From positions 1 to 34,293 of the forward strand of contig CANIKY010000028.1 of assembly GCA_947468085.1 (NCBI GenBank): a DNA stretch of 34,293 nucleotides. The letters are read 5' to 3'. Positions 9,341-29,014 of the stretch are shown one piece after another. Made by a program: the position numbers and the translations under genes. Each line of letters starts with the position of its first letter. The first letter of the stretch is position 1. The notes under the pieces were generated by a model. It did no database searches, had not been told where the DNA came from, and saw nothing but the letters and a program-made list of their open reading frames with translations. The DNA is from Paracoccaceae bacterium (lineage in GTDB: Bacteria; Pseudomonadota; Alphaproteobacteria; Rhodobacterales; Rhodobacteraceae).

Positions 9341-9365
9341 AAGGGCCACCTAAGCGGTGACCCTT
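9341..9365 (-). terminator. Terminator-like hairpin just upstream of arfB
   Basis: On the minus strand, AAGGGTCACC and GGTGGCCCTT form a 10-bp stem with one mismatch and a five-base loop. The following bases, TCTCTTAT, are U-rich in RNA. It lies 20-44 bases before the arfB ATG, so it would end the short upstream transcript or attenuate read-through into arfB. Confidence 0.55.
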
Positions 9366-9436
9366 CCCGAGTTCCAAGGAGATGGGCCAGTTAGGGCATC
9401 CATCCAACCAGTGGCCGTCTTACCAAGGGGCTGCCC

Positions 9437-9493
9437 TTAGAAAACGAACCCTCTAGCTGTCCCGACACCTCTCTCCAAAATCACTCTAGACAC
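9437..9493 (-). CDS. Short ORF (18 codons) with near-perfect Shine-Dalgarno
   Basis: GTG at 9493 to TAA at 9437 encodes an 18-residue peptide, VSRVILERGVGTARGFVF. It is proposed because the minus strand reads GAAAGGAGGTGA at 9509-9498. These 12 bases are fully complementary to the usual 3' end of bacterial 16S rRNA, and AGGAGG lies seven bases before the GTG. The bases after the stop contain two interleaved inverted pairs (GGGCA/TGCCC and GGCCA/TGGCC) and then the terminator-like hairpin at 9341-9365. It could be a leader peptide for arfB, a stand-alone small RNA with a coding part, or a non-coding RNA that binds ribosomes. I do not recognise the peptide. Confidence 0.45.
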   Translation of the reverse strand: MSRVILERGVGTARGFVF

Positions 9494-9529
9494 TGGGTCA
9501 CCTCCTTTCGAATTGGTTATCGATACAGG

Positions 9530-9558
9530 TAAGTTGGCACATATTTTGTGTTTGTCAA
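9530..9558 (-). promoter_or_regulatory. Candidate promoter for the short transcript before arfB
   Basis: On the minus strand TTGACA (9558-9553) is a full consensus -35 box, and 17 bases later comes AACTTA (9535-9530), a poor -10 box. It lies just after the yhhQ stop, and transcription from it would start about 15 bases before the strong Shine-Dalgarno. Confidence 0.35.
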
Positions 9559-9564
9559 AACCTT

Positions 9565-10185
9565 TTACGCAAGCCTTATGCTAAATCTGGCAACAATCAG
9601 GCGAAAAGGCAGCAGGCCGAACAAAGCGATCCCAAATTTTACACACCAATCGGCCACGGCCAGCGAAACCCATAGGGGAACCTGCGGCCCGTTGCCCAAC
9701 AAGGGGCCCGGAACGGCGGCCCAAGACACATCGCTTGACGGTTCCAGAAAGGTCAGGCCTGCTGCAAAGGCGATGGTGAAGAAGATCACGCTGTCGACCG
9801 TTGACCCCAACAGGGTCGAGATCAGCGGTGCCCGCCACCATTCCGCACGGCGCAGACGGTCAAAGATCGTTACATCCAGCAACTGACCGACAAGAAAAGC
9901 CATGCCCGACCCCAGCGCCACGCGCAGCGAGACAAGGGGGCCAAATTCGTTGTGTAATTGCGTGCCGATGAACGAACAGGCCAAGCCCGCGATAAACCCC
10001 GCCAAAACCACCCGCCTTGCTGCCCGTGCACCAGCCAATCGGTTGGTGATGTCGTTGACCAGAAAAGACAAAGGATAGGTGAAGGCCCCATAGGTCAGAT
10101 AAGACCCAAAGGTGTGTTGTACCAAGATGTTAGAGGCCACAACGATGGCGGCCATGGCAAGGATGCCGGGAAGTAGGTTTTTCAT
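9565..10185 (-). CDS. yhhQ: Queuosine precursor transporter, YhhQ/VUT family
   Basis: YhhQ imports queuine-pathway precursors (preQ0 and preQ1) for the queuosine modification at G34 of certain tRNAs. The 206-residue protein has about six membrane segments and the family signatures TYPLSFLVNDITNR (about 36-49), ALGSGMAFLVGQLLDVTIFD, a charged-residue helix with GSTVDSVIFF, and ADWCVKF near the end. The length fits the family. The ATG at 10185 is preceded by CGGA, a weak ribosome site that forms part of a preQ1-I-like pseudoknot, which suggests feedback by preQ1 at the level of translation. It lies 103 bases downstream of mepA on the same strand, with its own possible promoter between. Confidence 0.93.
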   Translation of the reverse strand: MKNLLPGILAMAAIVVASNILVQHTFGSYLTYGAFTYPLSFLVNDITNRLAGARAARRVVLAGFIAGLACSFIGTQLHNEFGPLVSLRVALGSGMAFLVGQLLDVTIFDRLRRAEWWRAPLISTLLGSTVDSVIFFTIAFAAGLTFLEPSSDVSWAAVPGPLLGNGPQVPLWVSLAVADWCVKFGIALFGLLPFRLIVARFSIRLA

Positions 10186-10192
10186 GATCCAT

Positions 10193-10221
10193 TCCGTTTT
10201 TTACAAGGTCGCGGAGACTTG
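10193..10221 (-). promoter_or_regulatory. Candidate preQ1-I riboswitch before yhhQ
   Basis: Read on the minus strand, P1 is CAAG (10221-10218) paired with CUUG (10207-10204). The loop is UCUCCGCGAC, and the tail is UAAAAAACGGA. The loop bases UCCG (10215-10212) can pair with CGGA in the tail (10196-10193), giving the H-type pseudoknot of preQ1-I aptamers. Compared with the B. subtilis aptamer as I remember it, the A-rich tail UAAAAAAC is identical and the GC-N-AC segment around the ligand-binding C (here C at 10211) is kept. The P2 pairing changes from UAG:CUA to CCG:CGG, a compensating change. The GGA of P2 is the probable Shine-Dalgarno, so ligand binding would block translation. P1 is short at 4 bp. 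Confidence 0.55.
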
Positions 10222-10243
10222 GCCCTCCTCATGAGGACAGGGT

Positions 10244-10272
10244 CTTTTGAAGCGCGGGTGCATCTTTGTCAA
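10244..10272 (-). promoter_or_regulatory. Candidate yhhQ promoter
   Basis: TTGACA on the minus strand at 10272-10267 is a full -35 box, 16 bases past the mepA stop. A -10 box 17 bases on would be CAAAAG (10249-10244), a weak match. Transcription would start shortly before the riboswitch-like element. The GC-rich inverted repeat at 10221-10244 overlaps this start. Confidence 0.35.
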
Positions 10273-10288
10273 CCAGCGCCGCCTTGCG

Positions 10289-11164
10289 TCACTTGGCCTT
10301 TAGAACGCCAGTGCATTGGGCCGGCAGGTCGGCCATGGTGAACTCTTTGGGGCCCTTTTTGCGCGGCGGCGGGTTTGGGTTGGGTTTGGGGTGCAGATAG
10401 GCGTTTGACACCCAATAGGCCAAGGTTTCGTCACACCCGCTGCCGCCTTTTGACAACTCTGACACGCTGGGCTTTTGGGTTTGGCACAGGTCTGATCCGG
10501 GGGGGCATTTCAGGCGCACATGCAGATGGTCTTGGTGGTTTGCCTCTGGCCGGATGCGTTGCAGCCAAGCGGTATCTGCCGCCGTTGCGGTTTTGCACAG
10601 TTCCAACTTGATGGCGGCCGCCACAAAGATCCGGTCCACCCGCGGGTCGGATGCAGCAGCTTTAAGCACATCGCGGTAGCTATCGTTCCAGTTTTCGTTG
10701 ACCGATTTTTGGTCTTCGCTGCGGATGGAAATAGCGCCCAGCTTCTCGCGCTCCTCTGCCGTCAAATCTAGCCGTGCAGGCGGCAAGAACCACACATCGG
10801 CGTCCAGCCCCATCTGGTGGCTGGCATGGCCTGAAATCATCGGTCCGCCGCGCGGATTACCCAGATCGCCAATATAAAGCCCCTTCCAGCCAAAGGCGGT
10901 GACGGCTTGGCTTAGGTCTTGCAGATAGTCCACCAGCACCGGATGGCCCCAGTTGCGATTGCGTTTCAGGCGCATGGCCTGCCAAGTCGGCCCTGTTTGT
11001 GGCAATTCAACATTGCCAGCGGCACAGCCGCGCGCATAGGTGCCGATCGGTTGCGATGGGGTGGCACTGGGTTGGGTTTTGGCGGCAAACAGTTTGGCCG
11101 CCAGCGTTTCACCGACAGCCGGTTGGGCCAGCGCCAAAAGCGCAAGCAGGATCAGGCGTTTCAA
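10289..11164 (-). CDS. mepA: Penicillin-insensitive murein endopeptidase MepA
   Basis: MepA is a periplasmic LAS-type metallopeptidase (M74) that cuts D-Ala-mDAP cross-links in peptidoglycan. The 291-residue protein starts with a signal peptide (MKRLILLALLALAQPAVG). It shows GGPMISGHASHQMGLDADVWF (His113, Asp121 as zinc ligands) and ANHQDHLHVRLKC (His210, His213, His215), plus conserved cysteines. The proline- and lysine-rich tail near PKPNPNPPPRKKGPK is unusual. The frame is open further upstream inside the MFS gene, but the start is taken as TTG 11164. The signal peptide begins there, GGGAG lies seven bases before it, and the TTG overlaps the MFS stop as TTGA, so translation is probably coupled. 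Confidence 0.93.
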   Translation of the reverse strand: MKRLILLALLALAQPAVGETLAAKLFAAKTQPSATPSQPIGTYARGCAAGNVELPQTGPTWQAMRLKRNRNWGHPVLVDYLQDLSQAVTAFGWKGLYIGDLGNPRGGPMISGHASHQMGLDADVWFLPPARLDLTAEEREKLGAISIRSEDQKSVNENWNDSYRDVLKAAASDPRVDRIFVAAAIKLELCKTATAADTAWLQRIRPEANHQDHLHVRLKCPPGSDLCQTQKPSVSELSKGGSGCDETLAYWVSNAYLHPKPNPNPPPRKKGPKEFTMADLPAQCTGVLKAK

Positions 11165-27817: not shown

Positions 27818-28963
27818 TTATTGTGCTGCAATTTCGGCATGAAAGGCGTAGGCGATCCACGGCAGCAGGGCTTGCACATCGGATGTTTCCACCGTCGATC
27901 CGCACCAGATGCGCAGGCCGGGGGGGGCGTCGCGGTAAGCGCCCATGTCAAAGCCAGCGCCTGCCTTTTCGATACGCTTGGCCACGGCCTTGGCAAAGGC
28001 AGCGCCATCTTTGATGCGCGGATCGGTGAATTTCAAACACACCGAGGTGGTGGAGGCTGTCGCAGGCACTTCGGCCAGATTGGCGATCCACGGGTTGGCG
28101 GCGCAAAAATCCCAGATAGTGTGGGCATTGGCACTGGCGCGCGCGATCAAGCCGGACAGCCCGCCCACCGACTGCGCCCATTTCAGCGCGACAAGGTAAT
28201 CTTCCACCGCGAGCATCGAGGGCGTGTTGATTGTCTCGCCACTAAAAATCCCCTCGATCAGCTTACCCTTGGCGGTCAGGCGGAAGATCTTGGGCAGGGG
28301 CCAAGAGGGTGTATAGCTTTCCAGCCGTTCGACAGCACGCGGCGACAAGATCAGCATGCCATGCGCGCCTTCGCCCCCAAGCACTTTTTGCCACGAAAAG
28401 GTGGTCACATCTAACTTGTCCCACGGCAAGTCCATCGCAAAGGCGGCAGAGGTTGCATCGCAAATCGTCAGCCCCGCACGGGTGGCGGGGATGGCGTCGC
28501 CATTGGGCAAGCGGCAGCCCGAGGTCGTGCCATTCCATGTGAACACCACATCGCTGTCAAAATCGACAGTGGCGAAATCAACGATCTGCCCATAGGGCGC
28601 GATCTTAACTTTGGCGTCCAGCTTAAGCTGCTTGACCACATCGCTGACCCAGCCTTCGCCAAAGCTTTCCCAGGCCAACATTTCCACCGGACGGGCCCCC
28701 AACAGTGACCACATCGCCATTTCCACAGCGCCCGTGTCTGAGGCGGGCACGATGCCGATGCGGTAATCGGCGGGCACGCCCAAAATCTGACGGGTCAAAT
28801 CAATCGCCTCGGCCAATTTGGCTTTGCCAATCGCCGCGCGGTGCGAGCGGCCAAGGGGCGCGTCAGACAACATCGACAGGGAAAAGCCGGGGATCTTGGC
28901 GCAAGGGCCAGACGAAAAGCGCGGGTTTGCCGGCCGCGCGGCCGGGGTCTGCAGATCAGGCAT
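27818..28963 (-). CDS. serC: Phosphoserine aminotransferase
   Basis: SerC moves the amino group of glutamate to 3-phosphohydroxypyruvate, giving phosphoserine; the family also acts in vitamin B6 synthesis. The 381-residue fold-type I enzyme shows [44 protein letters not shown], the PLP-nitrogen Asp in ICDATSAAF, and the Schiff-base Lys193 in [14 protein letters not shown]. This is the alphaproteobacterial type, about 20 residues longer than the E. coli enzyme. The ATG at 28963 is preceded by GGAAGGA. The leader carries a structured element that may be the serC leader RNA. It is the first gene of the serCA operon and divergent from serB. Confidence 0.97.
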
Positions 28964-29014
28964 GGTATCCTTCCAGATAAGTGCCCCCCGTTGGGGAGGG
29001 GTGTCCCACGGACC
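28964..29014 (-). promoter_or_regulatory. Probable serC leader RNA
   Basis: The minus-strand leader reads GGTCC near 29014, then GTGGGACACCCCTCCCC, a loop, GGGGGGCAC, and the ribosome site GGAAGGATACC directly before the ATG. GGUCC can pair with GGAUACC, placing the Shine-Dalgarno in a stem, and CCCC can pair with GGGG in an inner hairpin. A serC leader motif whose last stem covers the ribosome site is known upstream of serCA in alphaproteobacteria, and this layout agrees with it. I compared by memory only. Its ligand is unknown. Confidence 0.5.

What the first reader, a model, noticed from the sequence alone, without database searches (positions are those of the whole stretch)
10186..10245. 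preQ1-I-like pseudoknot in front of the queuosine-precursor transporter gene yhhQ
Seen: a minus-strand stem (CAAG/CUUG), a ten-base loop and a UAAAAAAC tail, with loop UCCG complementary to tail CGGA, ending in the probable Shine-Dalgarno of yhhQ. Known: preQ1-I aptamers have this H-type pseudoknot, an A-rich tail, a ligand-binding C after the P2 strand, and often control queuosine genes including transporters. Inferred: UAG:CUA of the B. subtilis aptamer is replaced by CCG:CGG with pairing preserved, the kind of covariation expected of a divergent aptamer. A variant in Rhodobacteraceae may be poorly caught by existing models.
Basis: partly seen in the sequence, partly recalled or inferred. 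Interest (0 to 1): 0.75.

Follow-up and report, generated by a model that had tools for sequence, protein, structure and literature searches.

The report
Variant preQ1 riboswitch before yhhQ
In front of a transporter gene that imports building blocks for a tRNA modification, this bacterium carries a tiny RNA switch, shared by most of the sampled relatives and not recognised by the standard RNA library, that most likely turns the transporter off when enough of the imported compound, preQ1, is inside the cell.

Summary
The pseudoknot is real: stem CAAG/CUUG (10221-10218/10207-10204), ten-base loop, A-rich tail, and loop UCCG pairing with tail CGGA, the probable Shine-Dalgarno 7 nt before the yhhQ AUG. 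Alone it is within chance for 34 kb, but it is conserved. A motif model hits 157 of 198 family genomes; 130 of 131 hits checked lie just upstream of YhhQ; 0 of 17 YhhQ-less genomes have a hit. P1 covaries, the outer P2 pair co-varies, and longer linkers go with an extra P1 pair (P 1.8e-7). Pocket bases are in preQ1-I register, but the specificity C is 10208, not 10211. Rfam's PreQ1 model gives no match. Not in the finding: a covarying hairpin abutting the 4-bp P1 in most leaders, probably at the transcript 5' end. The genome (96% complete) has queA but no detected queC or queF, so preQ1 is the likely ligand. Best reading: a Rhodobacteraceae variant of the preQ1-I riboswitch, between types II and III, repressing yhhQ translation. 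Ligand binding is untested.

The parts
10267..10272 (-). probable -35 box TTGACA
   Evidence: Sequence. Family profile anchored on TTG[AC][CG] (80 of 98 leaders) shows a TA step starting 17 nt after the hexamer. The strict sigma-70 scan of 9500-10400 finds no site.
10244..10249 (-). probable -10 region (CAAAAG, poor match), 17-nt spacer
   Evidence: the place fits the family profile (T 0.80, A 0.82 at the first two positions). Inferred.
10222..10238 (-). hairpin P0: GUCCUC/GAGGGC with loop AUGAG, abutting P1; probable transcript 5' end
   Evidence: Stem of at least 5 bp ending at -1 to -3 of P1 in 72 of 98 leaders, 40 shuffled sets mean 11.8, maximum 17. Stem pairs occur in several Watson-Crick types.
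10218..10221 (-). P1 5' strand CAAG
   Evidence: covariation.
10208..10217 (-). pseudoknot loop UCUCCGCGAC; U10217 matches the L1 uridine and C10208 the specificity base
   Evidence: pocket roles from PMC10622847 section 8.
10212..10215 (-). P2 5' strand UCCG (anti-Shine-Dalgarno)
10204..10207 (-). P1 3' strand CUUG
10197..10203 (-). A-rich linker L3 (UAAAAAA); A10197 matches the adenine that reads preQ1
   Evidence: length correlates with P1 length.
10193..10196 (-). P2 3' strand CGGA, probable Shine-Dalgarno of yhhQ
   Evidence: 7 nt before the AUG here; AUG or GUG 6-10 nt after CGGN in 95 of 98 leaders (the extraction asked for one within 4-17 nt).
9565..10185 (-). yhhQ, queuosine precursor transporter, 206 aa
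   Evidence: NCBIfam TIGR00697 above cut-off; Pfam Vut_1.

Best explanation
It is a preQ1-sensing, translation-controlling riboswitch of the class I (H-type pseudoknot) kind, in a form seen here in one family (Rhodobacteraceae, by the titles of matching public records), that gives feedback control of the transporter YhhQ. Inferred mechanism: transcription starts at or near the foot of hairpin P0. P0 stacks on the 4-bp P1. When preQ1 accumulates it pairs with C10208 and is read by A10197 and U10217. Loop bases U10215-G10212 then pair with C10196-A10193, hiding the Shine-Dalgarno GGA, and translation stops. When preQ1 is scarce P2 opens and YhhQ is made. Shown here: structure by comparison, conservation, covariation, gene linkage, spacing to the start codon, and the gene set of the genome. 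Inferred: ligand, direction of control, transcript start and the role of P0.
For: Near-invariant block just before yhhQ with variable flanks. Present in 81 of 90 family genomes whose leaders I read. Model hits in 157 of 198 family genomes, or 121 of 162 without the 36 genomes that gave sequences to the model; 130 of 131 hits checked are adjacent to YhhQ; 0 of 17 YhhQ-less genomes hit. P1 99.6% of cells paired, two pairs with two-sided changes, pairing about 50% when the partner is slid by one column. Outer P2 pair 75 of 98 paired, shuffles mean 67.2, 0 of 10000 as high. Linker of 9-10 nt goes with a fifth P1 pair: 6 of 8 against 1 of 90, P 1.8e-7. No terminator-like site in 9500-10400, which fits translational control. 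No queC or queF match in the genome, queA present; PMC5372724 (passages) states that absence of queF leaves preQ1 as the only precursor that can be salvaged. The same family carries Tte-like preQ1-I aptamers before queC in 15 of 18 queC genomes.
Against: No ligand binding or expression data. Rfam PreQ1 does not match. P1 is 4 bp, shorter than the 5-6 bp stated for described types (PMC10622847). In the P1 count 13 of 500 shuffles reach the observed number of pairs with two-sided changes and 12 of 500 the number of pair types. The P2 core CCG/CGG hardly varies and says little; the outer P2 pair fails in 23 of 98, and among the 63 distinct motifs its excess is smaller, 43 paired against a shuffled mean of 37.8, 36 of 10000 as high. 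One leader (L102) has G for the specificity C. 9 of 90 leaders read lack the motif; 24 of 181 YhhQ genomes have no model hit. 26 of 98 leaders lack a clear P0. One genome (G114) has a second model hit that I did not examine. Counts are not corrected for relatedness, and the extraction rule required T first and CCG in the loop. The unknotted fold of the window leader is no more stable than shuffles (z +0.99). The genome is 95.95% complete in 196 contigs, so gene absences are not certain.
Confidence: 0.88

Rival explanations
1. The pseudoknot is a metabolite switch of the same shape but with a different main ligand: preQ0, queuine or another purine.
For: YhhQ proteins may carry preQ0, preQ1 or queuine (PMC5372724, passages). 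Some family genomes keep queF (18 of 100 above cut-off).
Against: The genome has queA but no match for queF or queC, so preQ0 would be a dead end and queuine salvage is not implied. The pocket bases match those that read preQ1.
Confidence: 0.06
2. It is a translational pseudoknot of another family, such as the SAM/SAH riboswitch, or is bound by a protein.
For: The SAM/SAH riboswitch is an H-type pseudoknot with coaxial stem-loop and pseudoknot helices (PMC7367207, search listing only); that it is common in Rhodobacterales is recalled.
Against: cmscan of the leader at E up to 10 lists no SAM family. 130 of 131 hits checked lie before yhhQ. The specificity C, A-rich linker and L1 U fit preQ1-I.
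Confidence: 0.03
3. The conservation comes from a leader peptide translationally coupled to yhhQ. In the window an AUG in the P0 loop (10232) opens a frame that ends UGA overlapping the yhhQ AUG.
For: The frame is visible, and 36 of 98 leaders have an upstream ATG within 40 nt open through the aptamer.
Against: 62 of 98 leaders have none. The linker varies by single nucleotides, which shifts the frame (for example L008), and changes in P1 follow base pairing.
Confidence: 0.02
4. A conserved Shine-Dalgarno region with chance pairing and no switch.
For: The single site is within chance for 34 kb.
Against: Two-sided P1 changes, linker-length correlation, P0 covariation and linkage to one gene.
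Confidence: 0.01

Closest known systems
preQ1-I type II riboswitch (Tte, Bsu)
   Same: H-type pseudoknot. AC before the P1 3' strand (90 of 98 leaders). Ten-base loop as in Tte (Tte sequence recalled). An adenine then C opens the P2 3' strand, the C pairing with the loop G, as in the C7-G11-C30 ceiling of Tte.
   Different: P1 of 4 bp; P2 of three to four consecutive Watson-Crick pairs UCCG/CGGA, whereas only two of four steps are canonical in Tte; hairpin P0 upstream in most leaders; no Rfam RF00522 match.
preQ1-I type III riboswitch (E. coli yhhQ, PDB 8fza)
   Same: Same gene, proteobacterial, pyrimidine-rich loop, Shine-Dalgarno GGA buried in P2, AC at the specificity base.
   Different: Loop 10 nt in 85 of 98 against 9 in my reading of the E. 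coli leader. UC, not UU, after the P1 5' strand in 83 of 98. Linker 5-10 nt, mostly 6-7, shorter than in E. coli. CGGA or CGGG in place of AAGG. Type III is described as almost exclusively gammaproteobacterial (PMC10622847).
Rhodobacteraceae queC leaders (preQ1-I, Tte-like)
   Same: Same family of bacteria, same architecture, in 15 of 18 queC leaders; two score 33-36 bits with RF00522, below its cut-off of 39.
   Different: Loop UCGCAGCC[UC]AC and tail AAAACAAGG; a different P2.
SAM/SAH riboswitch
   Same: Small H-type pseudoknot (PMC7367207, search listing).
   Different: Other ligand; no Rfam match here.

Membership tests
preQ1-I riboswitch (class I) | H-type pseudoknot: P1 hairpin whose loop pairs with the 3' tail (P2) | tested here: met
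   P1 with two-sided changes; outer P2 pair and linker/P1-length correlation.
preQ1-I riboswitch (class I) | Specificity cytosine immediately 5' of the P1 3' strand | tested here: met
   97 of 98 leaders; the extraction allowed only C or G.
preQ1-I riboswitch (class I) | A-rich L3 ending in A before P2, and a uridine opening the loop | tested here: met
   but required by the search rule. The looser fuzzy search shows the same block in its hits.
preQ1-I riboswitch (class I) | Linked to a queuosine biosynthesis or transport gene | tested here: met
   130 of 131 hits checked are adjacent to YhhQ.
preQ1-I riboswitch (class I) | P1 of 5-6 bp in the described types | tested here: not met
   No pair beyond the four in 91 of 98 leaders (one of them with a mismatch in P1); the other 7 have one to three more.
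preQ1-I riboswitch (class I) | Match to Rfam RF00522 at its gathering score | tested here: not met
   Window none; over the cut-off in 0 of 198 genomes; 20 leaders none at E up to 10. In one search it rings in only 1 of 14 controls, B. subtilis, and not in E. coli, which carries a proven type III aptamer, so this model is not decisive.
preQ1-I riboswitch (class I) | Binds preQ1 and regulates | not testable with these tools
   Needs binding and reporter assays.
preQ1-I type III | UU after the P1 5' strand and AAGG in the tail | tested here: not met
   UC in 83, UU in 8, UG in 7 of 98; tail CGGA, CGGG, CGGU or CGAG.
preQ1-I type II | AC before the P1 3' strand | tested here: met
   90 of 98; CC in 7, AG in 1.
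SAM/SAH riboswitch | Match to its Rfam family | tested here: not met
   cmscan of the leader at E up to 10 lists none.

The most novel reading that the evidence does not exclude
A fourth subtype of the class I preQ1 riboswitch, seen only in Rhodobacteraceae among the genomes sampled, in which a minimal 4-bp P1 is stacked flush on a hairpin (P0) at the 5' end of the transcript, so that the whole roughly 50-nt leader is the switch. It would report preQ1 in bacteria that can neither make preQ0 nor reduce it and so live by salvage.
Probability: 0.45. Interest if true: 0.65.

Novelty: new variant of a known kind. Interest (0 to 1): 0.58.

Why it matters
It adds a riboswitch to a large and ecologically important bacterial family in which the standard model reported none over its cut-off in the 198 genomes sampled, and it would be among the smallest natural metabolite sensors. 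It gives type III-like control of yhhQ a second, differently built example, with an upstream hairpin whose role can be tested. It also links a sensor to a gene set (queA present, queC and queF not detected) that predicts preQ1 itself as the nutrient taken up.

Tried and rejected
Rfam at gathering and at E up to 10 on the leader: no preQ1 match. Leader-peptide reading: not conserved. Element elsewhere: in a class sample of 385 genomes 11 had a hit, 5 in the family and 6 weak ones outside (E 3e-4 to 0.009); the stretches fetched around those 6 (L149-L154) hold no YhhQ match, so I treat them as chance. In a phylum sample of 200, 16 had a hit, 7 in the family and 9 outside (E 8e-4 to 0.01); apart from G223, already seen, I did not examine their neighbourhoods. 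yhhQ leaders outside the family: of 76 class genomes with a YhhQ match I took leaders of 65, plus 3 MAG loci. 50 could be anchored on the start, and the descriptor hit 2 (L033, L034; shuffles mean 0.13). The other 18 were scanned as stretches with a slightly looser rule, 1 hit, AT-rich and probably chance. MAFFT alignment A1 does not align P2 because the linker length varies, so P2 was counted by script. Idea that P0 is lost when P1 is longer: not supported (P0 in 4 of 8 against 68 of 90, P 0.20). A hand-written regular expression failed, and a second rule picked some wrong sites; both were replaced. Papers: PMC10622847 (abstract, passages, sections 4 and 8), PMC11625349 (abstract, passages, section 4), PMC5372724, PMC9495176 and PMC3766115 (passages), PMC7367207 (search listing). 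PMC3766115 surveyed 15 Rhodobacterales genomes with RF00522 and says preQ1 riboswitches occur in one or two proteobacterial lineages; the passages seen do not name them. McCown 2014, the source of the type I-III consensus, is not held. I found no report of a Rhodobacteraceae yhhQ riboswitch in the searches; I opened only the papers named here, and most subscription papers are not covered.

Full report
What was claimed and what is there. On the minus strand before yhhQ the sequence reads GUCCUCAUGAGGAGGGC CAAG UCUCCGCGAC CUUG UAAAAAA CGGA AUGGAUC AUG. The downstream gene is a queuosine precursor transporter (TIGR00697 above cut-off; Pfam Vut_1). A generic descriptor for such pseudoknots finds only this site in the window on both strands; eight shuffled windows give 0 to 6. 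The single instance is therefore within chance and the case rests on comparison.

Conservation. YhhQ is found in 181 of 198 family genomes. I read the leaders of 90 of these: 2 of the genus, the next 28 that came with loci, and 60 of the 63 lowest in the printed list. 81 carry the motif and 9 do not. With the other genus genomes and the public genome contigs (many of them the same genomes) the total is 117 leader loci, 108 with the motif. These reduce to 98 distinct leaders and 63 distinct motif sequences. A model (R1) of 37 ungapped motif sequences hits 157 of 198 family genomes at E up to 0.01. 36 of the 37 sequences come from this draw; without those genomes it is 121 of 162. Of the hits I could pair with a printed YhhQ place, 130 of 131 lie 5-50 nt before the YhhQ match on the same strand; in the exception the YhhQ match and the motif are on different contigs. 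One genome, G114, has a second hit that I did not examine. None of the 17 YhhQ-less genomes has a hit. In a class sample of 385 genomes the hits stronger than E 3e-4 are all in this family, and the 6 weaker ones outside it are not near a YhhQ.

Structure. In 63 distinct sequences 99.6% of P1 cells are paired; the outer pair changes C-G to G-C (2), the third A-U to U-A (3) or G-C (1), the second A-U to G-U (7). Sliding the partner strand by one column drops pairing to about half. 0 of 500 shuffles reach the pairing and covariation score, 13 of 500 the number of pairs with two-sided changes. The P2 core CCG/CGG hardly varies. Its outer pair is U-A 60, C-G 9, U-G 5, A-U 1 of 98 and does not pair in 23, of which 22 have G in the loop; none of 10000 shuffles reaches the observed 75 (mean 67.2). 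Among the 63 distinct motifs the effect is weaker: 43 paired, mean 37.8, 36 of 10000 as high. A geometric test is independent of base identity: linkers of 9-10 nt have a fifth P1 pair in 6 of 8 leaders, linkers of 5-7 nt in 1 of 90 (P 1.8e-7). This is expected if the linker spans the P1 groove. None of these counts is corrected for relatedness.

An upstream hairpin not in the finding. In most leaders a hairpin, P0, ends against P1. A stem of at least 5 bp ending at -1, -2 or -3 occurs in 72 of 98 leaders, against a mean of 11.8 (maximum 17) in 40 shuffled sets; counts fall to background further upstream. Among 54 distinct flush hairpins the inner pairs occur as C-G, G-C, U-A and A-U. Anchored on a -35-like TTG[AC][CG] (80 of 98), the leaders show a TA step 17 nt on, so transcription probably starts near the foot of P0. 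In the window itself the -10 is poor and a strict scan finds no promoter and no terminator. The unknotted minimum-energy fold of the window leader contains P0 and the P2 helix but is not more stable than shuffles (z +0.99).

Register with preQ1-I. PMC10622847 (sections 4 and 8) and PMC11625349 (section 4) give the class I pocket: a cytosine just 5' of the P1 3' strand pairs with the ligand, and L3 adenines and L1 uridines read its other edge. Here these are C10208, A10197 and U10217. AC precedes the P1 3' strand in 90 of 98 leaders, as in types II and III. The type III hallmarks UU and AAGG are not kept (UU in 8 of 98), and P1 is 4 bp instead of 5-6. CGGN is followed by AUG or GUG after 6-10 nt in 95 of 98 (the extraction asked for one within 4-17 nt), so P2 would bury the Shine-Dalgarno sequence, as in the E. 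coli yhhQ switch.

Why preQ1. queC is matched in 18 of 198 family genomes and not in this one. queF (TIGR03139) is above cut-off in 18 of 100 and has no match in this one. queA is matched in 99 of 100, this one included. The genome is 95.95% complete, so absences are likely but not certain. PMC5372724 (passages) says that organisms with the late pathway but no queF can only salvage preQ1. In the family's queC genomes, 15 of 18 queC leaders carry a Tte-like preQ1-I aptamer, so the family uses this sensor elsewhere.

Is it in the library. RF00522 does not match the window leader or 20 other leaders at E up to 10. In 198 genomes it gives two weak hits, both before queC, none over its cut-off. It also fails to ring in the E. 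coli control, so its silence does not argue against membership.

Verdict. It works like, and very probably is, a preQ1-I riboswitch, in a variant between types II and III. Ligand binding and regulation remain to be shown.

Noticed in passing
window 9342-9515, minus strand (between yhhQ and arfB): A conserved block starting GAAAGGAGGUGAYCCAGUG, complementary to the 3' end of 16S rRNA (complementarity recalled), occurs in 36 distinct stretches of the fetched yhhQ loci and is followed by what reads as a terminator hairpin. Rfam gives a sub-threshold match to the Caulobacter sRNA CC2171 (26.9 bits against 75, E 4.5e-4).
   Followed up: partly
L033 1465-1495 and L034 1466-1495: yhhQ leaders of two Rhizobiaceae-labelled MAGs read CUGG UGGCAUCCAC CCAG GAUAAAAA(A) AUGC: a possible preQ1-I-like pseudoknot in which loop GCAU would pair with the start codon itself. 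No Rfam riboswitch match at E up to 5.
   Followed up: partly
L126-L133 and L135-L141 (queC loci): 15 of 18 queC leaders of the family carry CCGG UCGCAGCC[UC]AC CCGG and AAAACAAGG, a Tte-like preQ1-I aptamer. Of 8 loci given to Rfam, 2 match RF00522 at 33-36 bits, below its cut-off of 39, and 6 do not match at E up to 0.1.
   Followed up: partly
L102 (G062), motif at 220-247: One yhhQ leader keeps the whole motif but has G where the specificity C is expected, so its ligand may differ or the switch may be dead.
   Followed up: no
window 10182-10232, minus strand: A short frame from AUG in the P0 loop runs through the aptamer and ends UGA overlapping the yhhQ AUG; 62 of 98 leaders have no such frame.
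   Followed up: yes
window 28960-29011, minus strand: Strong Rfam match to the serC leader RF00517, 66.6 bits.
   Followed up: no
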